The position numbers were made by a program, and so were the translations under genes. 64,000 nt of DNA from Comamonadaceae bacterium (GTDB lineage: Bacteria > Pseudomonadota > Gammaproteobacteria > Burkholderiales > Burkholderiaceae_C), in the NCBI GenBank assembly GCA_947375135.1, contig CANCER010000001.1:124001-188000 (forward strand). The letters run 5' to 3'. Positions 52,220-64,000 of this stretch are shown one piece after another. The notes under the pieces were generated by a model. It worked only from the letters and a program-made list of their open reading frames with translations, did no database searches and was not told the DNA's origin. Within the stretch, counting starts at the first letter, position 1. Each line of letters starts with the position of its first letter.

Positions 52220-52424
52220 GGAGTCTCCATTGATGTGGGGTGATAAGTGGGTGCTTTGATGCAGCGTGACAAGCTGGCAAGCCATCGACTGTCCTTACAG
52301 ACTTTTCGCAATCAATTCGTGCCGGAAGCCGTTCGGGCTTGTTGGCCATTCTAGCGCGGCAGGTCTGTGCCGGACGGGCCCCTGCCTGCGCATGGGCTCA
52401 CCACGACGTTGATAGACTCTCACG

Positions 52425-52469
52425 ATGACCGAAGACCTCTCCAAACACACCCCCATGATGGCCCATTAC
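52425..52469 (+). pseudogene. mutS: 5' fragment of mutS (first ~15 codons)
   Basis: ATGACCGAAGACCTCTCCAAACACACCCCCATGATGGCCCATTAC = MTEDLSKHTPMMAHY, the MutS N-terminal signature, then unrelated PCGIAFMRVVA-stop. Confidence 0.75.
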
Positions 52470-52786
52470 CCCTGCGGTATAGCATTCATGCGGGTTGTAG
52501 CCTGATTTCTAACTTTTTGGCGGTAATTGAGAGGTGAAGGTTATCCCCTTGTTCATCATCAGCGCCTGAAAGCTCACTTCCCAGGGTGAAGCCCCCCACT
52601 GACGCCGCCAAATCAGCCAAAAAGCGGGCGTTTTTGCCACCGTAAGTACCGCCAAATTTCGTTGGGCGGCCTACCCTGCCTGCCGCCAAATTCGATTGTA
52701 TTGATGAGGCAAACCGCAGTACCAGCCAGCCCATGACATTACCCAATGGGTGACTTTTTGCATCAGCTCCACCGATCGTCAAATTT

Positions 52787-53155
52787 TTATGCCGAGATCA
52801 GGTGCTCTGTGACTAGCTCCCGCTTGTTGAATGACGCCCATGCAAACGCATCTTCCTTTGCGTATTTTGAAGGTGTCATGGTCGCCTCAATTGCCAACAT
52901 GACGTCAAGGCTTCCAGCGGCAGCAGCCATGCGGTAGACCAAGAAGTCGTTTACGCTTGGGTTTGCACCAAGCGACATCAGTTTTTTTACGCTCTGCATA
53001 TCTTGGCGAACAGACGCCATTGCTAAGGCTGCATCTTCGAGACCAAGCCCACGTGAGGCTGGCGTAAAGGTACCACTCCAAACCTCCGACATTCGTCCAC
53101 GTGACCAATGCAAAAAAAATACGAACTTACGCTTTAGACTCTGCCAACTATCCAT
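52787..53155 (-). CDS. Small ankyrin-like protein
   Basis: DMQSVKKLMSLGANPSVNDFLVYRMAAAAGSLDVMLAIEATM resembles degenerate ankyrin repeats. Confidence 0.5.
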   Translation of the reverse strand: MDSWQSLKRKFVFFLHWSRGRMSEVWSGTFTPASRGLGLEDAALAMASVRQDMQSVKKLMSLGANPSVNDFLVYRMAAAAGSLDVMLAIEATMTPSKYAKEDAFAWASFNKRELVTEHLISA

Positions 53156-53205
53156 TGGTCACCTCCTGACCAATATCTATCTCACATTAAAATGAGTATT
53201 GCAAT

Positions 53206-53409
53206 ATGGTTTCTTGGCTTAAACGTGTGCTTAAAAAAAGGACGACACTTTCCGCAATAGTTGTCGCCAAAACAACAATCATGAATCGCTCACTGTTCGA
53301 CTTCTTTGCCCAAGATGACATTAGGAATGCTATGACAGCAATCGGCTATACGTATGTAGGGAAACCGGGAACAGCCGATGCGAGCGATCCCGATTCATAT
53401 CGTGCCTAA
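53206..53409 (+). CDS. Small hypothetical protein
   Basis: Intact 67-aa ORF; no clear SD. Confidence 0.3.
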   Translation: MVSWLKRVLKKRTTLSAIVVAKTTIMNRSLFDFFAQDDIRNAMTAIGYTYVGKPGTADASDPDSYRA

Positions 53410-53468
53410 CAGGCAACATTTCTTGTATTGACACTTCACGGTCTTGTGACATGCGCCCTGCTGGTCTG

Positions 53469-53486
53469 TTATGCACCGGCGCATAA
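53469..53486. repeat. Palindromic repeat copy 1 (one mismatch)
   Basis: TTATGCACCGGCGCATAA. Confidence 0.8.
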
Positions 53487-53823
53487 AGTGGTGAACGTCA
53501 TACGGCTACGCCCGAACAGTGGGCATGTCGTCCCATGAGGTGGAGTATTCAGGAGACTTCCGGTCTTGCTTCATTCCCCACCGCCTTGGTGCGGAGCCCA
53601 CCCGCGCACTGCCAATCTTGAGGCACTCTTGCCCCACCGATCATTGACAGCATCCATGGCCGACATGATCTTGATCACGAAAGTACCGCACCGACCACCT
53701 CACCACCGTGTCGTCGGTATAAGTCTTAACAGACCAGAGGGCTATGCTTATCATGGGAACTTGTTGACCCTAATCGCGATTTCTGCGAGCTTGTTGAGAC
53801 AAAAAAAACAAAAAGGAATCCCA

Positions 53824-54351
53824 ATGAGCACCGCATCTACTCTCGGAACACTTTTCGCCTTCCTCGCCGTGGGTGGCGTAGCACTTGTAATCCTCAAAGC
53901 CAAGCTAGCGGCAAAGTCCGGTACGGAGGGTGAGAAATTCAAAGCCAAAGACTTGTTCACCCCCAACGAACTTGAATTTCTGGTTCGCCTCGAAACGGCA
54001 GCTCCTGAAATCAGGTTCCATGGCCAGGTCTCGATGGGAGCCATTCTTGAACCGACCGCATCGAAGAAAGATGGCAAGGCCTTTTACAGTGCACGAGGCC
54101 AATTCGCCCAAAAGCAAATCGACTTTGTCGCACAAGACCGCAAGACTGGACGAATCGTTGCCATCATCGAGTTGGACGACCGCACCCACAGTGCTGAAAA
54201 GGATGCCAAGCGTGACGCAATGCTCAACGGTGCTGGCTACCGCACCATCCGCTGGAATTCAAAAAACAAGCCAGACACGGCAGCTATCCGTGCACAGTTG
54301 TTTCCCGTTTCAACACCCCAACCCAATACGGTAGCAACGCCCAAGCCATGA
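53824..54351 (+). CDS. Membrane-anchored DUF2726 (restriction endonuclease-like fold) protein
   Basis: N-terminal TM TLFAFLAVGGVALVILKAK; DLFTPNELEFLVRLE...KQIDFVAQDRKTGRIVAIIELDDRTH. Confidence 0.8.
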   Translation: MSTASTLGTLFAFLAVGGVALVILKAKLAAKSGTEGEKFKAKDLFTPNELEFLVRLETAAPEIRFHGQVSMGAILEPTASKKDGKAFYSARGQFAQKQIDFVAQDRKTGRIVAIIELDDRTHSAEKDAKRDAMLNGAGYRTIRWNSKNKPDTAAIRAQLFPVSTPQPNTVATPKP

Positions 54352-54399
54352 ATCCGCCGACCAGCTCACTGCGGTTTCACTAGACTAATTGGTTGCGAC

Positions 54400-54600
54400 C
54401 TAGCCTCTCGGGGGTGCCCAGTCTCTTGGTGTTACATACGGTTCGTCACGGGTAATTCGACTTTGGCGATTTTGGTCGTGAACGTTCTTGTGAAACTGAC
54501 TTGTGAGCGTCGGGTGTCCGAGGGCAACCGGGGCAGCTGGAATGGGATGCTGCCGTGGTTCAAGTCTTTTTTCGCGCGGGCGTTTCCTCTTTTTTGCCAT
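54400..54600 (-). CDS. Small basic hypothetical protein
   Basis: MAKKRKRPREKRLEPRQHPIPAAPVALGHPTLTSQFHKN...; preceded by AGGAGGAG. Confidence 0.4.
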   Translation of the reverse strand: MAKKRKRPREKRLEPRQHPIPAAPVALGHPTLTSQFHKNVHDQNRQSRITRDEPYVTPRDWAPPRG

Positions 54601-54745
54601 CCATGCTCCTCCTACGAATCGCTTTGCAGTTTTGGCCGGTGAAACACAGCCAAGCATTCACTCACTGGCCGCAGCCTTGATCAGTTCGTCGATATCCACG
54701 GTGACAGGAAACCAAAGTCGACAAATATCTTTTACTCGTCCATCG

Positions 54746-54765
54746 TTTATGCGCCGGCGCATAAA
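54746..54765. repeat. Palindromic repeat copy 2 (perfect, 20 bp)
   Basis: TTTATGCGCCGGCGCATAAA. Confidence 0.9.
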
Positions 54766-54812
54766 AAGGAATCCACTCGACTGTCCACGAAAATTGCCGA
54801 TGCAAGTCGCCG

Positions 54813-55307
54813 TCAAGGCACTTTATGCGCCGGCGCATAAGCATACGACCAGTCCACTTTTCGATCACTCTGATGTTCCGGATTTCCAGTTAAGTCCGTT
54901 TGCAAGCCGAAAAATTCCCGTTTCAGCCTGAGTCCCAGTGTCTCACTGCTACGGGTTTCACATTCCCAGATCTCTACAACTCGCCAGCCCTTTTCCTCAA
55001 GCAGAGCCTTGTTGCGCCGATCGCGGTCTACGTTGGCTTGAAACTTCAAGGCCCAAAATTCGGGCCTCGTTTTTGGGGTGGCTGCGAGTTTGCAATTGTG
55101 TCGGTGCCAGAAGCAGCCGTGAACGAAGATAACAGTGCGATGCTTTGCCAGCACAAGATCGGGTGTTCCTGGCATTTTTTTGCAGTGCAGCCGGAACCTC
55201 AGGCCCAAACGGTGGACCATTGAGCGCACCAGAAGCTCAGGTACGGTGTCTTTCCCCCGGATGGCCTGCATGACCTCCCGGCGTTTTGAAGGTGAGAAAA
55301 CGTCCAT
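54813..55307 (-). CDS. vsr: Very short patch repair (Vsr) endonuclease
   Basis: MDVFSPSKRREVMQAIRGKDTVPELLVRSMVHRLGLRFRLHCKKMPGTPDLVLAKHRTVIFVHGCFWHRH...RDRRNKALLEEKGWRVVEIWECE. Confidence 0.95.
   Translation of the reverse strand: MDVFSPSKRREVMQAIRGKDTVPELLVRSMVHRLGLRFRLHCKKMPGTPDLVLAKHRTVIFVHGCFWHRHNCKLAATPKTRPEFWALKFQANVDRDRRNKALLEEKGWRVVEIWECETRSSETLGLRLKREFFGLQTDLTGNPEHQSDRKVDWSYAYAPAHKVP
54823..54840. repeat. Palindromic repeat copy 3 (perfect, 18 bp)
   Basis: TTATGCGCCGGCGCATAA, inside the 3' end of the vsr ORF. Confidence 0.9.
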
Positions 55308-55384
55308 GTACAGTTTGAATTGTGAGGCATTCCCAGAAATGCAGGTTGGCACGGACACCCGTGTTCCCAGCGAAGCTCAATTTT

Positions 55385-55590
55385 TTATCGCCCTCCACTG
55401 TCCATCGGCTCAAACTGGTATCCCTTAATCGGCCCTGTTTCGTACACAAAGCCCACAAATATCTTTTTCTCGCCCGCCGCTGGTGCACGTGCCTCGCTAA
55501 AATTTGACGATATTCGAATAAGAGCACCGACATGACCACTGGGAATGGTTTTCGCGTGGGGTTAGCCACGCGACCTACTACCACCTTCAC
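55385..55590 (-). pseudogene. Small ORF with strong SD and a one-base frameshift upstream of vsr
   Basis: GTG after GAGGAGGAAAAAAT; frame 1 VKVVVGRVANPTRK then frame 2 ...SGHVGALIRISSNFSEARAPAAGEKKIFVGFVYETGPIKGYQFEPMDSGGR-stop; one extra A in AAAA would join them. Confidence 0.4.
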
Positions 55591-55653
55591 ATTTTTTCCT
55601 CCTCGCCAGTCCGGTGAGAGCTGGCTGCGCTCAAAAACGAGAGTGATCGCCGT

Positions 55654-58581
55654 TTGAATGATATGAACCAAGGTGTTGTTGCTGCAACTCTGCACCGGAC
55701 GTTCAAAATGGCGGTGTGGGCAGGTGTTGAAAGTTCCGTCAAACTTCACATTGAGCGCGGTGATCCGCTGGAAGCCCGTGATGAACAGGGGCAAACCCCT
55801 CTCATGCTCGCTGCGGCACGCAATAAGCCCCACATTTGCAAGATGCTGATTGATGCCGGTGCCAGTCCGTTGGCGACCGACCCCAAAGGCAGGCAAGCAC
55901 TCGACTTCGCTTTGGAGGCCAAAGCCATCGACGCCGCACGTGTTTTGGGTTGGTCCGATGCGGAAATCGTCACGGCGAAGGCCTCGGATGACCCACCGGT
56001 CGCCCCGTACATCTCCGTACATGCCCCGGCCGTCCCCGCAGTGCCCTTGGTGGTCGATGACATTCAGGTCTTTCTTCCTTATATCCACGACACACCCGAA
56101 GCGCCGATTGCCGTACTTGCCCAAGAAATTCCGATCCCCGCACCGACAGCCACTGTTTCCGCTCAACCCGAAGTCCCTCTGGAATTTGTTGACGTTACCT
56201 CTGACACGAGTGATCACCTTGATTGGATTTCCGAGGTCGACGCAGAACGTCCCGTCGAAGATCCCACCCTCCTCGAGGGTCTTGGCAAGACACACGACGC
56301 GATATCGGCTTTCAAGCCCATTGACTCTTCGGCGGATTGGTCTGACTTGGATGTTTTCCTTCCCGAAAGATCCACCCCACTGGCCAAGGCCGATGATCCG
56401 GAAGCTCGAGCCGAGCTCAGACGTCTTCTCCTGCGTGCCATGCGTGAAGGCAGCGTCCCAGCACTGAACCTTGACGAACTTACGCGCGACCCGGACGAGG
56501 TTAGGAGTGCGGCCACTGAGGCACTGATCGTCCGCATCATTGGCGACCTGGGAGGCGAAACTGATGAGCGCTTTGAATATCAAACGGCTCTCGAAGACTT
56601 CACGGTCCATGTGGATCCCACAGAGTCTGCTGAGGAAGACGACCTCCTTTCTGATGCTCTTGAACTTTACGACAACGTTTCCAACCGTCGCAACGATCTG
56701 CTGTATTTGTATTTCAGGGAAACGCAAAGAATTGATCTGATTGACGCCAAGCAGGAGGCGGCGTTGGGCAGGCGCATGGAGACTGGCTACAAAGACACCA
56801 TGGAGGTCATCAGTACGAATCCCGTCTTAGTGACTGAGCTGCTCCATGTTGGCCTTGAACTGAAAGAAGGTCGCACCAGCCTGAGCAACATCCTGACTGG
56901 GTTACTGCTCCCCACCGATCCGATCTCTGACTCGCCATCCATTGCCGATGAAGCAGAAGAGGTCGACGATGTGGAGGCGGAATCCCAGACCCCGCAGGAG
57001 CGCATCGACGAAGTGCTGCTTCTGTTTGCGAACATACAAAACCTTGCGACATCCCTTGAATCGGCCCGCAAGACTTCTGGACCGGATTCAAAGGCCTATC
57101 TCGATTTGCAAGAGGCGTTGACCGCTGCCTGCCAAGTTTTTCGACTCGCTGACGCCGTCATTGAACAGATCATCCGACCACTTGCAAATAGTGCTGACGG
57201 GATTTGGCGGTGTGAGACTGCACTCCACACCCTCTTGGTAAAAGGCTGCGGATATCCGCCGCAGGACTTCATTGCGACCTTTATCGACACCGGTCCTCAC
57301 ACAGGTGCAAAGAGGCCCAACCCGTGTGATCTGCAATGGGCAGAAACGGAATCCGCGACTGATCTTCCTTGGGCTAACGCATTGAAGCCGCATGTCCAAA
57401 CCATTGTCTCGCTGCAAAAGGAACTTGCCGCCATTGAAGCCGATGCCGGACTGCCCCTTCACGTGCTGAAATTTCAGCGCAAGAGGCTGTCCAATGCAGC
57501 CACTGAGATTCAACGTGCGAAGCACAAGCTTGCAGAGGCAAATCTGCGCCTCGTCATTTCCATTGCCCAACGCTATCGGCACAGTGGCATTCCCTTTGAA
57601 GATCTCATCCAAGAGGGCAATCTTGGTCTTTTGAAATCCGTCGACAAGTTCGACTACCGGCGCGGCTACAAGTTTTCAACCTATGCCACTTGGTGGATTC
57701 GGCAGGCTGTCAGTCGATCTGTGGCTGATGACTCACGCGTCGTTCGAGTGCCGGTGCACGCGCATGAGACCGCACAGCGACTCATGAAAGCTTACGAAGC
57801 TTATGAGAGCACCACGGGTCGGCTGCCCACCCTGACATACCTCTCAGAAACCGTCGATGTCCCACTTGGAAAAGTTCGCACTTTTATGCGGTCGACCTTC
57901 GAGACGATACCGATCACCGAACTGGCCGAGGTGGGCCTCATCCCCACTGAAAGCATGGATGACTATCTTGTCCCCGATCCCTACATAGCAGCATGTGAGC
58001 ACGAGTTTTCTCGCAACTTGGAAGACATGCTTGATCAATTGGACACCAATCAGGCTCGCATCATCCGGATGAGGTTTGGTCTGTTTGGATTGGAAGAGCT
58101 CACCTTGGACGACATCGGGCGCCAATTCGAACTTACCCGTGAGCGCATTCGGCAAATCGAAACCCAAGCTTTGAAAGCACTTCGGATACTCGTTGAATTC
58201 GGGCTGGAACCCAAAAAGAAGATTCCAAGTCGGTCGTTGCAAATTTCGCTGCAAGTGTCCCCAGTCGTAGTTCCCACCATTCGCCCCTTGAGGCCCGAAG
58301 TCCGAACCCCTGTACCGCCTCGAAAAGTAGCCGAGTCTGTCCCCATAAAACCTAAACGTTCAAGCGACCGACCGACGGGTAGTTATTACGTTGAACAAAT
58401 GTTGGCCAGAGCGACTGCCCTCGGACTTTCCGTATCCAGAGTACCGCTGAGTGATCGCACTGAATATTGGGTCCACTTCAACGACATCAGTTGTGCACCT
58501 GATTCGACCACTCGATCCCTGTTGCGAGGTCTGATTGAGATGGGCTTTGTATACGTCACCGGAAAAGGCTACCGAAAATGA
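55654..58581 (+). CDS. Ankyrin-repeat / RpoD-like sigma-70 fusion protein (975 aa)
   Basis: N-term EARDEQGQTPLMLAAARNKPHICKMLIDAGASPLATDPKGRQALDFAL; region 2 ANLRLVISIAQRYRHSGIPFEDLIQEGNLGLLKSVDKFDYRRGYKFSTYATWWIRQAVSRSVAD; region 4 LTLDDIGRQFELTRERIRQIETQALKALR. Confidence 0.92.
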   Translation: MNDMNQGVVAATLHRTFKMAVWAGVESSVKLHIERGDPLEARDEQGQTPLMLAAARNKPHICKMLIDAGASPLATDPKGRQALDFALEAKAIDAARVLGWSDAEIVTAKASDDPPVAPYISVHAPAVPAVPLVVDDIQVFLPYIHDTPEAPIAVLAQEIPIPAPTATVSAQPEVPLEFVDVTSDTSDHLDWISEVDAERPVEDPTLLEGLGKTHDAISAFKPIDSSADWSDLDVFLPERSTPLAKADDPEARAELRRLLLRAMREGSVPALNLDELTRDPDEVRSAATEALIVRIIGDLGGETDERFEYQTALEDFTVHVDPTESAEEDDLLSDALELYDNVSNRRNDLLYLYFRETQRIDLIDAKQEAALGRRMETGYKDTMEVISTNPVLVTELLHVGLELKEGRTSLSNILTGLLLPTDPISDSPSIADEAEEVDDVEAESQTPQERIDEVLLLFANIQNLATSLESARKTSGPDSKAYLDLQEALTAACQVFRLADAVIEQIIRPLANSADGIWRCETALHTLLVKGCGYPPQDFIATFIDTGPHTGAKRPNPCDLQWAETESATDLPWANALKPHVQTIVSLQKELAAIEADAGLPLHVLKFQRKRLSNAATEIQRAKHKLAEANLRLVISIAQRYRHSGIPFEDLIQEGNLGLLKSVDKFDYRRGYKFSTYATWWIRQAVSRSVADDSRVVRVPVHAHETAQRLMKAYEAYESTTGRLPTLTYLSETVDVPLGKVRTFMRSTFETIPITELAEVGLIPTESMDDYLVPDPYIAACEHEFSRNLEDMLDQLDTNQARIIRMRFGLFGLEELTLDDIGRQFELTRERIRQIETQALKALRILVEFGLEPKKKIPSRSLQISLQVSPVVVPTIRPLRPEVRTPVPPRKVAESVPIKPKRSSDRPTGSYYVEQMLARATALGLSVSRVPLSDRTEYWVHFNDISCAPDSTTRSLLRGLIEMGFVYVTGKGYRK

Positions 58582-60062
58582 GTAAAACCCGCGCAGCACC
58601 GCCACGTGCAGGAGCCATGCTTGAAGCCTTACGCGGACTTGGCTACTCCACTGCCGCTGCACTGGCTGACATCATTGACAACAGCATCTCAGCCGGGGCC
58701 ACGGAAGTGCGACTGGACTTTCACTGGAACGAATCCCAAAGCCGAGTGACTGTGACCGATGATGGTCGCGGCATGGACGACGCTGAGCTTGAAAGTGCCA
58801 TGACCTTGGGTGACAAGAGCCCCTTGGATGACCGCGCTGCCTCCGACCTTGGGCGCTTCGGCATGGGCCTCAAAACGGCATCCTTTTCGCAGTGCCGCCG
58901 GTTGACTGTGGCGTCAAAAGCCGAAGGATCTGCGGTTGCCTGCTTACGTTGGGACCTGGATGCATTGGCCGCCAACCCTGATGGCGACTGGCTCTTATAC
59001 GAAGGTCCCGCCCGAGGCTCCGAAAAGTTTATCGACAAGCTGGTATCCATGCCCCATGGCACTGTGGTGCTTTGGGAGACCATGGACCGGATCGTCACGC
59101 AGTCCTATACCGTCGACGATTACAACGACATGATCGATCGGGTTGAGGCTCACTTGGCCATGATCTTCCACCGGCTCCTTCAAGGACCCCGCGCCAAGAT
59201 CAAGATCTTCATCAATGACCGTGCTGTATCTGCTTGGGATCCGTTCATGGTGGGACACGTGGCCAAGCCCTTTAACTCTCCCGTCGAGAGCAAGATCACT
59301 GACGCAGGCATCATCGAACTCGAATGCCATGTGTTGCCTCACAAGGACCGGCTCACCCCCGCCGAATTTGAATCCGGGGCTGGCCCCGAGGGATGGACGG
59401 CCCAACAAGGCTTCTATGTCTATCGCAACAAGAGACTACTTGTCGCCGGTGGATGGCTCGGACTTGGGCAAGGCCGTGCTTGGAATCGTGACGAGGCCAT
59501 TCGTCTTGCCCGTATTCGTCTCGATATCCCCAATACCGCAGATGCTGCATGGAAGATCGACATTCGAAAGTCAACAGCACGCCCCCCCGTCTCGCTACGC
59601 CCCTGGCTGACCAAGTACGCCGAGGACACCCGTAACCGAGCACGCCGGGTCTTTGCCTTTCGCGGCTCCCCGATGCCCGGTGCTGGGGGTGCTGCCATTG
59701 AACAAGCATGGAGGGTGGATCACACCGCCAATGGCTCGCGATATCGCATCGACGATAAGCATCCTGCCATCCAGGCCGTTCTCGAAAATGCTGGCAGTCA
59801 GCTCCCCATGATCAAAGCCATGATCCGTGTAATCGAAGAAACGGTGCCGGTGCAGCGCATATGGCTTGATACCGCCGAGAACAAAGAGACTCCTCGCACC
59901 GGATTTGCCGGTGAGCCACCTGAGGCCATCGTGGGCGTACTCAAAACTCTGTACCAGGACATGGTCGGGCGCCGTGGGCTCTCCCCCGAAGCGGCCAAGC
60001 GGACGTTGATGTCCACCGAGCCCTTCCAAAATTTCCCTGCTCTTGTCGCAGGCTTGCATTGA
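58578..60062 (+). CDS. GHKL (MutL/MORC/HSP90-like) ATPase
   Basis: ADIIDNSISAGATEVRLDF, VTDDGRGMDD, LGRFGMGLKTASFSQCRRLTV; ATGA overlap with the sigma ORF. Confidence 0.9.
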   Translation: MSKTRAAPPRAGAMLEALRGLGYSTAAALADIIDNSISAGATEVRLDFHWNESQSRVTVTDDGRGMDDAELESAMTLGDKSPLDDRAASDLGRFGMGLKTASFSQCRRLTVASKAEGSAVACLRWDLDALAANPDGDWLLYEGPARGSEKFIDKLVSMPHGTVVLWETMDRIVTQSYTVDDYNDMIDRVEAHLAMIFHRLLQGPRAKIKIFINDRAVSAWDPFMVGHVAKPFNSPVESKITDAGIIELECHVLPHKDRLTPAEFESGAGPEGWTAQQGFYVYRNKRLLVAGGWLGLGQGRAWNRDEAIRLARIRLDIPNTADAAWKIDIRKSTARPPVSLRPWLTKYAEDTRNRARRVFAFRGSPMPGAGGAAIEQAWRVDHTANGSRYRIDDKHPAIQAVLENAGSQLPMIKAMIRVIEETVPVQRIWLDTAENKETPRTGFAGEPPEAIVGVLKTLYQDMVGRRGLSPEAAKRTLMSTEPFQNFPALVAGLH

Positions 60063-60094
60063 ATCTGTTCTAACAATAACGACGAAAGATCTTC

Positions 60095-62977
60095 ATGGCA
60101 GAAAACGACAAATCCCTGGCCGCTGTCGTCAGCATTGCTCAGACCCTTCTCAAAGCCGAAGAAGGTCGTATCAGCATCACGCCTGATGTCATTGCGGAGA
60201 AAGTGAAACTTGCCGCACTGGCACTCGCGAGCGTCTACCCCGAAGGTGTCGACCAACAGGCAGCATGCGTGGAACTGGTGCGCCGGTTTAGCCACTGGAT
60301 TGGCAAAGATTCGAGCCTTGAAGACAACAGTGGTCATGAAAAGTGGCTCGATGCCTCCCGAAAGAAGGACTGGCGGTACTGGCAACGCTATCAGGGCTAC
60401 TTGGAAAAGAAGCTCTCAGTTGAAGTGGTCGAAGCCTTGGACCGCTCCACCGACCGCATCTTGGGACTTCTGGAAGACCCCAAACGCCAAGGCTCATGGG
60501 ATCGGCGCGGCCTTGTCGTAGGCCACGTGCAATCAGGCAAGACCGGCAACTATTCCGGACTTGTCTGCAAAGCCGCCGATGCGGGCTACAAAGTCATCAT
60601 CGTGCTGGCAGGCCTTCACAACAACCTGCGCTCACAAACCCAAATTCGCCTTGAAGAGAGCTTCTTGGGATACGAGACCTCTGCCACACGGGATCCAGGT
60701 AAACCCATCGGGGTAGCCGAAATTGACAGTGATCCGAGCATCCATCCCCACTGTGCCACGACCCGTGCCGATAACGGTGACTTCAATGTGGCCGTCGCAC
60801 GTCACTTTGCCATTTCTCCCGAAGAGCGCCCATGGCTTTTTGTCGTCAAGAAGAACAAATCCGTTCTGACCCAGTTACTTAAGTGGATCCGAAGCCATGT
60901 GGCAGATTCGACCGACAACGGGACTGGGCGCCGTATCGTGACCCGACTTCCCCTGCTTGTCATCGATGACGAAGCCGATAACGCCTCAGTGGACACCGGT
61001 GAGCAGCTCTTCAATGATGACGGCACCCCGGACGATGAGCACGAGCCCAAGGCCATCAACGGGCTGATTCGCAAGATATTGCACGCGTTCGACAAGTCGG
61101 CATACGTCGGCTACACCGCGACACCCTTTGCCAATATCTTCATCCACCGTCGCAATGAAACGACCGATGAGGGACCTGACCTTTTCCCACGGTCCTTCAT
61201 CGTCAACTTGGCGGCCCCTTCGAATTACATGGGGCCAGCACGCATGTTCGGTCTTCGATCCACGGAGGGTCGCACCGGTGGTCTGCCGTTGATGCATTAC
61301 GTCACCGATCACGTCAATCAGGATGCTCCTGGTGGGTGGATGCCCCCGAAGCACAACAAGGATCACGTCCCGACGTACGCGGGGCAAGAAATACTGCCGC
61401 CCTCATTGAAGTCTGCCGTGCGTGCATTCGTCCTTGCATGTTGCGCCCGTGAGATTCGCGGCCAAGGCAACGAGCACTCATCAATGCTCATCCACGTCAC
61501 GCGCCTAGTCAAGGTTCAGAATGCTGTTCACTTCCAAGTGGCCGACTTCGTCACCAAGATGAAGCAGCGCATTACACGCGGCAATGGTGATGCTGAATTT
61601 CTCACCCAGCTCAAAGACCAGTGGGAGACCGACTTCATACCGACTTGCAAGGAAGTGGCCATCCTCGTTCCCGAGACTGGTGGACCGCCGAAAGTTCCAA
61701 CATGGGATGAGATTCTTGCAGTCATGCCGGACGTCCTCTCCGACATTGACGTTCGCATCAGTAACGGCAAAGCCAAGGATGCTTTGGACTATGCGGCCAA
61801 TGGCGGCAAGGGCATCAAAGTCATCGCCATCGGTGGCGACAAACTTTCCCGAGGCCTGACCCTTGAGGGCCTGTGCACGAGCTACTTTGTGCGCACGACC
61901 AAGATGTATGACACCCTGATGCAGATGGGCCGCTGGTTCGGATATCGCCCAGGCTACATTGACCTTTGCCGCCTCTACACCACAGAAGATCTTGTGGAAT
62001 GGTTCGGCCACATCGCCGACGCCGCCGAGGAGCTTCGTGAAGAGTTCGACGCCATGGAGGAGGCAGGTGCCACCCCCGAGGTCTACGGCATCAAGGTGGA
62101 ATCACACCCGATCTTGCTTGTCACCTCGCCGCTCAAAATGCGCACGGCTCGAACACTCCAACTTTCATTCAGCGGTGAACTGCTTGAAACGGTTGCACTT
62201 CGCAAGGAGCCAGCCATTGTCAAAAGCAATCTCGACGCCACGAACCGCCTCATTGAAGCCATGGGGGATCCAGCCGAAGGTCCCATCATTTCAAGAACTC
62301 GTGCAGGCAGTGAATCACGATGGAGCGGCTACCTCTGGCAGAACGTCCCCGCTGAATTCATTGCGGACTTCTTCCTCCACTACGCGACCCACCCCAAGGC
62401 ACGCAAGGTCAACAGTGCACTGCTCTCAGAGTTTGTATTGACCATGGCCAAGCAGAAGGAATTGACCTCTTGGACGGTGGCGATGACCGGAGGCGGTTCC
62501 GTCAACTCGCACACCTTCGCACGGGGCCTCACCATCGATGCTTTGTTAGAGCGTACTGGGGACGACAAAATTCTAGACCGCTATTCGATTGGCCGTCTGC
62601 TTTCCCCGAAAGATGAGTCCATCGACTTGGACGATCAGGCCTGGCAGGCCGCACTGGCATCGACCATCAAGGCTTGGAAGTCCGATCCGGCACGGCAGAG
62701 CGACGGGGATAAGCGCAAGGAACCTGAGTTGCCCAATGGCCCCGCCGTGCGCCGTATCCGAGGCCGTGGAGCAGACGGCATCGCCCCGGCGCCTGAGCGC
62801 GGACTGCTTCTGCTGTATCCCTTGGACCCGAAGCTTTCCAAGGTCACCTCCTTGCTGGATCAAAGTGACCCTGTAATGGCCTTTGGTGTGAGCTTCCCGT
62901 CAAGCGACTCCGGGCTCAAAGTTGAATACCGTGTTGATCACCTTTTGTGGGAACAAGAATATGGCCCGGCAGAGTAA
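60095..62977 (+). CDS. Z1-domain superfamily II helicase-like ATPase
   Basis: GHVQSGKTGNYSGLVCKAAD, LLVIDDEADNASVD, GYTATPFANIFIHR, GGDKLSRGLTLEGLCTSYFVR, QMGRWFGYRPGY. Confidence 0.94.
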   Translation: MAENDKSLAAVVSIAQTLLKAEEGRISITPDVIAEKVKLAALALASVYPEGVDQQAACVELVRRFSHWIGKDSSLEDNSGHEKWLDASRKKDWRYWQRYQGYLEKKLSVEVVEALDRSTDRILGLLEDPKRQGSWDRRGLVVGHVQSGKTGNYSGLVCKAADAGYKVIIVLAGLHNNLRSQTQIRLEESFLGYETSATRDPGKPIGVAEIDSDPSIHPHCATTRADNGDFNVAVARHFAISPEERPWLFVVKKNKSVLTQLLKWIRSHVADSTDNGTGRRIVTRLPLLVIDDEADNASVDTGEQLFNDDGTPDDEHEPKAINGLIRKILHAFDKSAYVGYTATPFANIFIHRRNETTDEGPDLFPRSFIVNLAAPSNYMGPARMFGLRSTEGRTGGLPLMHYVTDHVNQDAPGGWMPPKHNKDHVPTYAGQEILPPSLKSAVRAFVLACCAREIRGQGNEHSSMLIHVTRLVKVQNAVHFQVADFVTKMKQRITRGNGDAEFLTQLKDQWETDFIPTCKEVAILVPETGGPPKVPTWDEILAVMPDVLSDIDVRISNGKAKDALDYAANGGKGIKVIAIGGDKLSRGLTLEGLCTSYFVRTTKMYDTLMQMGRWFGYRPGYIDLCRLYTTEDLVEWFGHIADAAEELREEFDAMEEAGATPEVYGIKVESHPILLVTSPLKMRTARTLQLSFSGELLETVALRKEPAIVKSNLDATNRLIEAMGDPAEGPIISRTRAGSESRWSGYLWQNVPAEFIADFFLHYATHPKARKVNSALLSEFVLTMAKQKELTSWTVAMTGGGSVNSHTFARGLTIDALLERTGDDKILDRYSIGRLLSPKDESIDLDDQAWQAALASTIKAWKSDPARQSDGDKRKEPELPNGPAVRRIRGRGADGIAPAPERGLLLLYPLDPKLSKVTSLLDQSDPVMAFGVSFPSSDSGLKVEYRVDHLLWEQEYGPAE

Positions 62978-63965
62978 CGAATTTTCCGTCGCGTGGAGTT
63001 CCCTCTCTGGGGATTCCGGTGACACCGGTTGGCGCACGATCGCCATCACCCCGGCGGGCCGCTGTGCTCTGAGTGCAGGGCGCAGGTTCCCTGGCAACGC
63101 ACAGTCCATGCTGGTGGGGTTCAAGACTTTGGCTCTGCCTGCCACCGAGCGCTTGCCCGAAGGTCAAGGATTCAGTGTTGAGCGCGTAACGCTTCCGGGT
63201 GATACACGCTCATGGCTCGCCCTAACCCGCAAGGAGAACGGTAGCCCCGAACTATTCTTGGCCATGGTGTGTGATGTGGCGGGCCTACTTGATCATGAAC
63301 ATCAGGCCGACGACGCCCATTTGCTGCGCATCTTCCTTGGGCGTGTACGGGCCTGGCAAGAGTTCATGCGTAAGGGCGTGGAGACTTTGAGCCCCGAGGC
63401 CGAAATCGGGCTCTTTGGTGAACTTCTGTGCCTATCCCAGATCATCGACTTGGGCGTGTCCCTTGAAACAGCCGTTTCATCGTGGGTTGGCCCACTTGAT
63501 GGCGTCCAAGACTTCGAAATTGGTACCGGTGCCATCGAAGTGAAGACGACGCTTTCACCTGTGGGATTTCCCGCGCATGTCGGCTCCCTTCAACAATTGG
63601 ATGACGCCACTCGACAACCACTCTTTCTGGCAGGAGTTCGGCTTCGTCAGCTTGCCACCGGGCGCACGTTGCCCGAGCTCATTGATGATTTACGCGTGAG
63701 CGTGGCTGGCACGCCCGATTCCACTCGTCATTTTGCCGAGCGCATATTGCGGGCAAGATACTACGAGGGACACCGGGACCAGTACACACGTCGCTTTGAG
63801 TTGGCCGGACTTCGGATCATCGAAGTTAAAGACGCCTTCCCACGTTTGACACCGGGGCGTGTGCCCGTTGGAATTTTCAAGGCCACTTATGACCTCGACA
63901 TAGATCGAGCGCCTGGCCTCAACATTGAATTGCGCGAAGCACTGAAACAATTGGGAGCACTTTGA
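62961..63965 (+). CDS. PD-(D/E)XK motif protein (DUF4420)
   Basis: LSPEAEIGLFGELLCLSQII...VQDFEIGTGAIEVKTTLSPVGFPAHVGSLQQLD. Confidence 0.88.
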   Translation: MARQSNEFSVAWSSLSGDSGDTGWRTIAITPAGRCALSAGRRFPGNAQSMLVGFKTLALPATERLPEGQGFSVERVTLPGDTRSWLALTRKENGSPELFLAMVCDVAGLLDHEHQADDAHLLRIFLGRVRAWQEFMRKGVETLSPEAEIGLFGELLCLSQIIDLGVSLETAVSSWVGPLDGVQDFEIGTGAIEVKTTLSPVGFPAHVGSLQQLDDATRQPLFLAGVRLRQLATGRTLPELIDDLRVSVAGTPDSTRHFAERILRARYYEGHRDQYTRRFELAGLRIIEVKDAFPRLTPGRVPVGIFKATYDLDIDRAPGLNIELREALKQLGAL

Positions 63966-63967
63966 AC

Positions 63968-64000
63968 ATGGAATTGCTGGATTTTCTGCGTGAAACGCAG
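63968..64000 (+). CDS. Start of next operon gene (truncated; AIPR-family expected)
   Basis: MELLDFLRETQ, two bases after the DUF4420 stop; identity inferred from gene order only. Confidence 0.35.
   Translation, partial: MELLDFLRETQ

What the first reader, a model, noticed from the sequence alone, without database searches (positions are those of the whole stretch)
52420..52510. Native mutS appears cut after ~15 codons: left boundary of the island
ATG at 52425 encodes MTEDLSKHTPMMAHY, matching the conserved MutS N-terminus (..HTPMMxQYLRLK..), then diverges into PCGIAFMRVVA-stop. No other MutS sequence occurs in the window. The breakpoint is at about 52469-52476 and everything to the right is accessory in character, so this is probably an integration junction.
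Basis: partly seen in the sequence, partly recalled or inferred. Interest (0 to 1): 0.7.

Follow-up and report, generated by a model that had tools for sequence, protein, structure and literature searches.

The report
Defence island spliced into mutS start
A 37-kb mobile island carrying anti-phage genes has inserted into the first codons of the DNA-repair gene mutS and brought its own copy of the gene's beginning, so the repair gene is re-headed rather than destroyed; elements that do this were described in 2017, but this one uses a different, apparently independently evolved integrase.

Summary
The junction is real. ATG 52425 starts the native mutS 5' end (the closest empty-site relative reads MTEDLKQ|HTPMMAQYLALKADFPD), and it is interrupted by a 37.1-kb island. 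mutS is not lost. The intact gene lies 25-28 kb past the window edge, fused in frame to an element-supplied start (…MASSESVAKDFSN|HTPMMAQY…). A 20-bp direct repeat, CACACCCCCATGATGGCCCA, marks attL (52446-52465) and attR (89551-89570, extended coordinates), with a divergent tyrosine recombinase next to attR. Of 29 integrase relatives found in about 85,000 species genomes, all 27 with readable flank sit at the same mutS codons with an open in-frame leader; seven left or internal stubs elsewhere show the same anatomy, and one locus is a tandem insertion. The cargo is mainly defence: Mza, Lamassu, C5 methylase, Vsr. The kind is known: Chu et al. 2017 (PMC5296598) described elements in the mutS HTPMMQQ motif that supply promoter and start. 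New here is the integrase lineage. It is not the E. coli-536-type lineage; an AU test rejects a single mutS-targeting clade (p=1.6e-7), so the site was probably acquired at least twice. Loss of mismatch repair is not indicated (own vs empty-site mutS dN/dS 0.06); altered mutS expression is untested.

The parts
52425..52505 (+). Native mutS 5' stub: MTEDLSKHTPMMAHYPCGIAFMRVVA*; codons 1-7 and the core are host-derived, the tail is read from the element's left end
52446..52465 (+). attL core CACACCCCCATGATGGCCCA (codons for HTPMMA + CA); exact copy at attR, extended coordinate 89551-89570 (G000:C1:213551-213570), beyond the window
52466..64000 (.). Left part of the 37.1-kb island (continues to extended coordinate 89550). 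Beyond the window: C5 methylase 69884-71434 (-), LmuA/LmuB 84015-86983 (+), 248-aa integrase partner 87057-87803 (-), tyrosine recombinase 87841-89316 (-), TTGGCGG cluster 89336-89428, element-supplied mutS start 89482 or 89512, host mutS from HTPMM 89551-92133 (+)
52516..52690 (.). Left-end cluster of four TTTGGCGG/CCGCCAAA sites (52516+, 52612-, 52656-, 52690-), candidate integrase arm-binding sites; the 52656 site lies 210 bp from the core, as in two other elements (209 and 211 bp)
53824..54351 (+). DUF2726 protein (also weak DUF559 match)
54813..55358 (-). Vsr-type mismatch endonuclease
55654..58581 (+). MzaA: ankyrin repeats + sigma-70 regions (start codon not determined)
58578..60062 (+). 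MzaB: GHKL-type (MutL/Hsp90-like) ATPase
60095..62977 (+). MzaC: Z1-domain protein
62961..63965 (+). MzaD: DUF4420
63962..64000 (+). MzaE: AIPR protein, start only (gene runs to extended coordinate 65737)

Best explanation
52425-52505 is the attL scar of a 37.1-kb tyrosine-recombinase integrative island that recombined into the HTPMM codons of mutS. Shown by sequence: the element carries, in its right end, a replacement 5' end for mutS (start codon, about 13-23 codons, upstream region), so integration leaves a short stub on the left and a complete hybrid mutS on the right, next to the divergent integrase. Inferred: the integrase exchanges strands in or near the ATGATG shared by both junctions; TTGGCGG repeats at both ends are its arm sites; transcription of hybrid mutS starts inside the element; excision would rejoin the native MTEDLSK start to the rest of mutS in frame. 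The main payload is anti-phage defence genes.
For: Intact mutS on the same contig and strand, with a 20-bp exact direct repeat 37,105 bp apart. Empty-site relative with the native start. Island GC 0.50 against 0.63-0.65 in the flanks. Integrase adjacent to attR with the catalytic R-K-HxxR-H-Y residues invariant in 21 aligned sequences. 27 of 27 readable relatives sit at the same mutS codon with an in-frame leader. Paired stubs in G008 (12.8 kb), G356 (9.8 kb), G353 (25.7 kb), G345 (79.4 kb), G346 (tandem) and G358 (about 40 kb). L017 matches the island at about 96% DNA identity up to the HTPMM codons, then falls to about 70-75% in mutS. 8 of 41 TTGGCGG sites of a 98-kb stretch lie in the outermost 300 bp of the two ends, P about 3e-10. 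Own mutS vs the empty-site relative dN/dS 0.058.
Against: No sigma-70-like promoter was recognised in the element's or the native mutS upstream region, so element-driven transcription is inferred. Excision and mobility of this copy were not observed, and no transfer gene was recognised among the island proteins searched (a relative with a near-identical integrase carries a TrwC relaxase). The empty-site contig ends 134 bp upstream of mutS, so synteny of the left neighbour (liv genes) was not checked there.
Confidence: 0.94

Rival explanations
1. mutS was inactivated by the insertion and the strain is a mutator; the right-hand mutS is a second, foreign copy.
For: The native start is physically severed, and a mutS element causes hypermutation on excision in Vibrio splendidus 12B01 (PMC5296598).
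Against: Only one mutS in the genome assembly. The right-hand mutS is 98% identical in protein to the empty-site relative with dN/dS 0.058, so it is the host's own gene. The reading frame is intact.
Confidence: 0.04
2. Beyond sitting in mutS, the island controls mismatch repair: hybrid mutS is expressed from a region packed with integrase arm sites, so mutS level depends on the island's state and on excision (as in SpyCI at mutL or the Vibrio mutS element). This is an addition to the best explanation, not an alternative anatomy.
For: The mutS start lies in the divergent int-mutS region with four TTGGCGG sites. The host's upstream region is left on the stub. Several family-A leaders show a TAGA box 8-9 nt before the start codon, resembling the native TAGAC box.
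Against: No expression data; purifying selection on mutS is compatible with constant, normal expression. No benefit to island or host is shown.
Confidence: 0.25
3. Ordinary prophage integrated in mutS.
For: Chu et al. report that some mutS elements are prophages; one IMG/VR contig carries a clade member (L092).
Against: None of the island proteins searched against Pfam or PADLOC matched phage structural families; close integrase relatives are absent from 50,697 phage records (best about 25% identity).
Confidence: 0.03
4. Assembly chimera at 52446.
For: Draft genome of 89 contigs.
Against: The same junction anatomy recurs in independent assemblies, including G008 in a single 5.3-Mb contig.
Confidence: 0.01

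Closest known systems
Mobile elements in the HTPMMQQ motif of mutS (Chu et al. 2017 mBio, PMC5296598: V. splendidus 12B01, E. coli 536, P. putida F1, B. multivorans CF2)
   Same: Same target motif, element-supplied promoter region and translation start, orphaned host start upstream, integrase next to mutS, 4 to >150 kb with variable cargo, horizontal transfer.
   Different: The integrase here belongs to another lineage: E. coli mutS integrases align at about 21% over part of the catalytic domain only, and one clade is rejected at p=1.6e-7. In 12B01 excision leaves a 2-bp frameshift; rejoining the flanks here gives an in-frame native gene, as Chu et al. found for E. coli 536, P. putida F1 and B. 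multivorans CF2.
SpyCI chromosomal islands at the 5' end of mutL in Streptococcus pyogenes (PMC3430984, PMC4689407)
   Same: Site-specific island at the start of a mismatch-repair gene; in one strain an island-internal promoter rescues the gene.
   Different: SpyCI integration separates mutL from its operon promoter and normally silences it; here the element supplies a replacement coding start to mutS.
SXT/R391 ICEs at the 5' end of prfC (PMC4542580, PMC4344509; that SXT supplies a new prfC start is from my own knowledge of Hochhut & Waldor 1999, not read here)
   Same: Integration in the first codons of a gene, with the element supplying a new 5' end.
   Different: Different target gene; 79-110-kb conjugative elements, whereas no transfer module was recognised in this island.
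Mza (MzaABCDE) and Lamassu (LmuAB) anti-phage systems
   Same: All five Mza proteins and both Lmu proteins match PADLOC models.
   Different: They are cargo of the mutS island, not the mechanism of the junction; the Mza set with C5 methylase and Vsr recurs in the G353 mutS element although its integrase is only about 33% identical.

Membership tests
Mobile elements within mutS (Chu et al. 2017) | Insertion within the codons of the HTPMMQQ motif | tested here: met
   Core CACACCCCCATGATGGCCCA = HTPMMA codons; junctions
Mobile elements within mutS (Chu et al. 2017) | Element provides a new translation start and upstream region giving an intact mutS reading frame | tested here: met
   (promoter activity itself not tested)
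Mobile elements within mutS (Chu et al. 2017) | Orphaned host start upstream that matches element-free relatives | tested here: met
   MTEDLSK vs MTEDLKQ in G313
Mobile elements within mutS, E. coli-536-type integrase lineage | Integrase of the same lineage as the published elements (found there by BLAST with the 12B01 integrase) | tested here: not met
   Against full-length E. coli mutS integrases: partial 21% identity, E 6e-6 at best; AU test rejects one clade. The 12B01 sequence itself was not available and Table S2 of the paper was not read. The island is therefore filed under the kind, not under that lineage.
Mobile elements within mutS (Chu et al. 2017) | Excision detectable by attB/attP PCR | not testable with these tools
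   Needs the strain
Tyrosine-recombinase integrative element | Tyrosine recombinase with catalytic residues plus flanking direct repeat | tested here: met
   PF00589 above cut-off; R291, K328, H394-x-x-R397, H420, Y431 invariant in 21 sequences; 20-bp repeat
SpyCI-type reversible mismatch-repair switch | Integration silences the repair gene; excision restores it | not testable with these tools
   Sequence shows an intact hybrid gene; expression unknown
ICE/IME (self-transmissible or mobilizable element) | Relaxase or conjugation genes in this element | tested here: inconclusive
   None among the island proteins searched with Pfam, but not every ORF was searched; a relative (G340) has a TrwC relaxase
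Mza defence system | All five proteins MzaA-E in one gene cluster | tested here: met
   55654-65737, PADLOC models PDLC02203-02207

The most novel reading that the evidence does not exclude
Two unrelated lineages of tyrosine recombinase independently evolved to target the same HTPMM codons of mutS. In the second lineage (Burkholderiales, this island) the integrase arm sites lie inside the region that now drives mutS, so successive elements, which can stack in tandem with each replacing the previous mutS head, put mismatch repair under mobile-element control while delivering phage defence.
Probability: 0.3. Interest if true: 0.7.

Novelty: new variant of a known kind. Interest (0 to 1): 0.4.

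Why it matters
It turns a suspected broken repair gene into a defined junction: annotators who see the stub should not call these strains mutators. The probable convergent evolution of two integrase lineages on the same mutS codons suggests that the site itself (highly conserved and re-headable in frame) is what is selected. It also gives a second, independent set of strains in which to test whether mobile elements tune mismatch repair, a question left open by Chu et al. 2017.

Tried and rejected
Chance match to MutS: rejected by the empty-site relative and the 20-bp repeat. Second, foreign mutS copy: rejected (single mutS in the assembly, 98% identical to the genus relative). Prophage: no phage structural family in the proteins searched; phage and plasmid collections have no close integrase; one IMG/VR contig (L092) belongs to the clade but is cut at the integrase and shows no att core. 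Long upstream open frame (GGDLADKLADRY...) as real N-terminal MutS: not accepted, because it is not open in most relatives and its conservation coincides with the TTGGCGG sites. Sigma-70 promoter scans: nothing found at either place. E. coli 536's own integrase is truncated, so full-length E. coli relatives were fetched for a fair comparison. A class-level search with the profile of this lineage found no mutS-adjacent member other than our own in 369 genomes, so the lineage looks restricted to Burkholderiales in this sample. A nucleotide search of E. coli genomes with our integrase gave nothing.

Full report
Coordinates. The window is G000:C1:124001-188000; beyond 64000 I use extended window coordinates (C1 position minus 124000).

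Observation. The genome has one MutS, intact, on the same contig and strand (919-codon open frame). Its HTPMM codon is at 89551, 37,105 bp to the right of the one in the stub. The two places share 20 exact bases, CACACCCCCATGATGGCCCA (24 of 25 over a slightly longer stretch). A same-genus genome with an empty site (G313, MutS 98% identical) has ATG ACA GAA GAC CTC AAG CAA directly followed by the core and the rest of mutS, and the bases just before the ATG (GTTGATAGACTC.CACG) also match the window. So the stub is the host's own mutS start, and the island lies between 52446 and 89551.

What replaced the start. Right of the island mutS reads ...MTLPSEKQGKMASSESVAKDFSN|HTPMMAQYLALKADFPD...; the leader is not that of the empty-site relatives. 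The host part of mutS is under strong purifying selection (own vs empty-site relative dN/dS 0.058 over 828 codons). Island GC is 0.50 against 0.63 and 0.65 in the flanks.

Integrase. A divergent gene (87841-89316, minus) encodes a 491-aa tyrosine recombinase with the catalytic residues invariant in 21 aligned sequences. A scan of one genome per species for about 85,000 species found 29 relatives. In all 27 whose flank is readable mutS lies beside the integrase and the mutS homology begins at the same codon, preceded by an open in-frame leader with a possible start codon. The other two are contig fragments. In Comamonadaceae, 5 of 301 genomes carry a close relative, all five at mutS, while eight weaker integrase matches are elsewhere. 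The hosts are Burkholderiales (Comamonadaceae, Oxalobacteraceae, Sphaerotilaceae); one contig binned as Hyphomonadaceae carries a Comamonadaceae-like mutS and is probably misbinned. Some genomes occur in both searches, so these counts are not independent.

Left ends. Paired stubs with the same anatomy (HTPMM, a few more codons, then a short foreign tail and stop) occur in G008 (12.8 kb), G356 (9.8 kb), G353 (25.7 kb), G358 (about 40 kb) and G345 (79.4 kb). In G345 the left stub already carries an element-type leader, so an older insertion lies further left. G346 has three cores in a row, 13.1 and 3.8 kb apart: the middle one joins an element-type leader to the next element's left end, and only the last is joined to mutS. 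Insertions can therefore stack, each taking over the head of mutS. Across all pairs the bases always shared by both junctions include ATGATG, which I take as the likely exchange region (inference).

Mobility. L017, a different host (MutS N-terminal region 73% identical), has a 99.4%-identical integrase. DNA identity is about 96% through integrase and leader and drops to about 70-75% right after the HTPMM codons. Within the stretch compared, only the integrase and its 248-aa partner are shared at the DNA level, and the L017 element includes a TrwC relaxase. No relaxase was recognised in the proteins of the window's island that I searched.

Ends. TTGGCGG/CCGCCAA occurs 41 times in 98 kb, yet four times in the first 300 bp and four times in the last 300 bp of the island (P about 3e-10). 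One left site lies 210 bp from the core here and 209 and 211 bp in two other elements, and the right-end spacings are repeated in L018. The more distant subfamily has GGGGACT repeats instead. I read these as integrase arm sites (inference). They occupy the region between int and mutS, where mutS must now be transcribed. Simple promoter scans found nothing at either end. Native mutS genes of the genus usually have TAGAC 12-13 nt before the ATG (12 of 15), and several family-A leaders have a TAGA box 8-9 nt before the start; this is suggestive only.

Cargo. MzaA-E, Vsr, a C5 methylase, LmuA/LmuB and a DUF2726 protein. The G353 element also carries Mza, Vsr and the methylase, although the two integrases are only about 33% identical. 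G008 carries a type II methylase, and G356 a protein resembling part of a type I restriction subunit.

What is known. Chu et al. 2017 (PMC5296598) described a 27-kb element in mutS of V. splendidus 12B01 that supplies promoter and start, whose excision leaves a 2-bp frameshift and hypermutation. They listed hundreds of beta- and gammaproteobacteria with elements in the same HTPMMQQ motif, and saw clean in-frame excision in E. coli 536, P. putida F1 and B. multivorans CF2. The window's island is of that kind. To see whether it is the same lineage I fetched E. coli mutS integrases, including full-length ones. They align with ours at 21% over part of the catalytic domain; ordinary non-mutS recombinases score higher against our profile than they do. 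The E. coli-type lineage sits at mutS in gammaproteobacteria and Burkholderiales, including one Comamonadaceae genome (19 of 60 loci checked). A tree of both lineages with their nearest non-mutS relatives gives two separate, well supported mutS clades, and holding them together is rejected (log-likelihood 84.9 lower, p-AU 1.6e-7). So the site was probably acquired at least twice. Limits: divergence is high and the test depends on the model; the 12B01 integrase and their Table S2 were not available, so I cannot say whether Chu et al.'s list contains members of this second lineage.

Verdict. attL of a mutS-targeting defence island, of a known kind with a separate integrase lineage. No evidence for loss of mismatch repair; an effect on mutS expression is possible and testable.

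Noticed in passing
window 54813-64000 and beyond; L078:144-12111: Mza system, C5 methylase and Vsr occur together in two mutS islands whose integrases are only about 33% identical (own and G353), most proteins 50-70% identical: cargo shared between element subfamilies.
   Followed up: partly
extended window coordinates 77376-82154 (L002 and L003): A low-GC block (about 0.41-0.43) inside the island with its own tyrosine recombinase (79144-80253, +), possibly a nested element.
   Followed up: no
L034:7022-9165 and L076:3558-5641: Two different mutS islands in different hosts share a very similar pair of genes near the left end: a RelA/SpoT-domain protein and a 37-kD nucleoid-associated (NA37) protein.
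   Followed up: no
G346:C79:6302-23176 (L081, L082): Tandem mutS insertions with three att cores; the integrase of the first element is frame-broken.
   Followed up: partly
E. coli complete genomes (L094, L118-L120): About 35 of 5,426 E. coli genomes carry the other (E. coli-536-type) integrase; where opened it lies at mutS. In E. coli 536 and Combat2C1 it is truncated to 249 aa.
   Followed up: partly
window 55654-58581: MzaA here fuses ankyrin repeats to a primary-sigma-like protein (Sigma70 regions 1.2, 2, 4 and the non-essential region).
   Followed up: no
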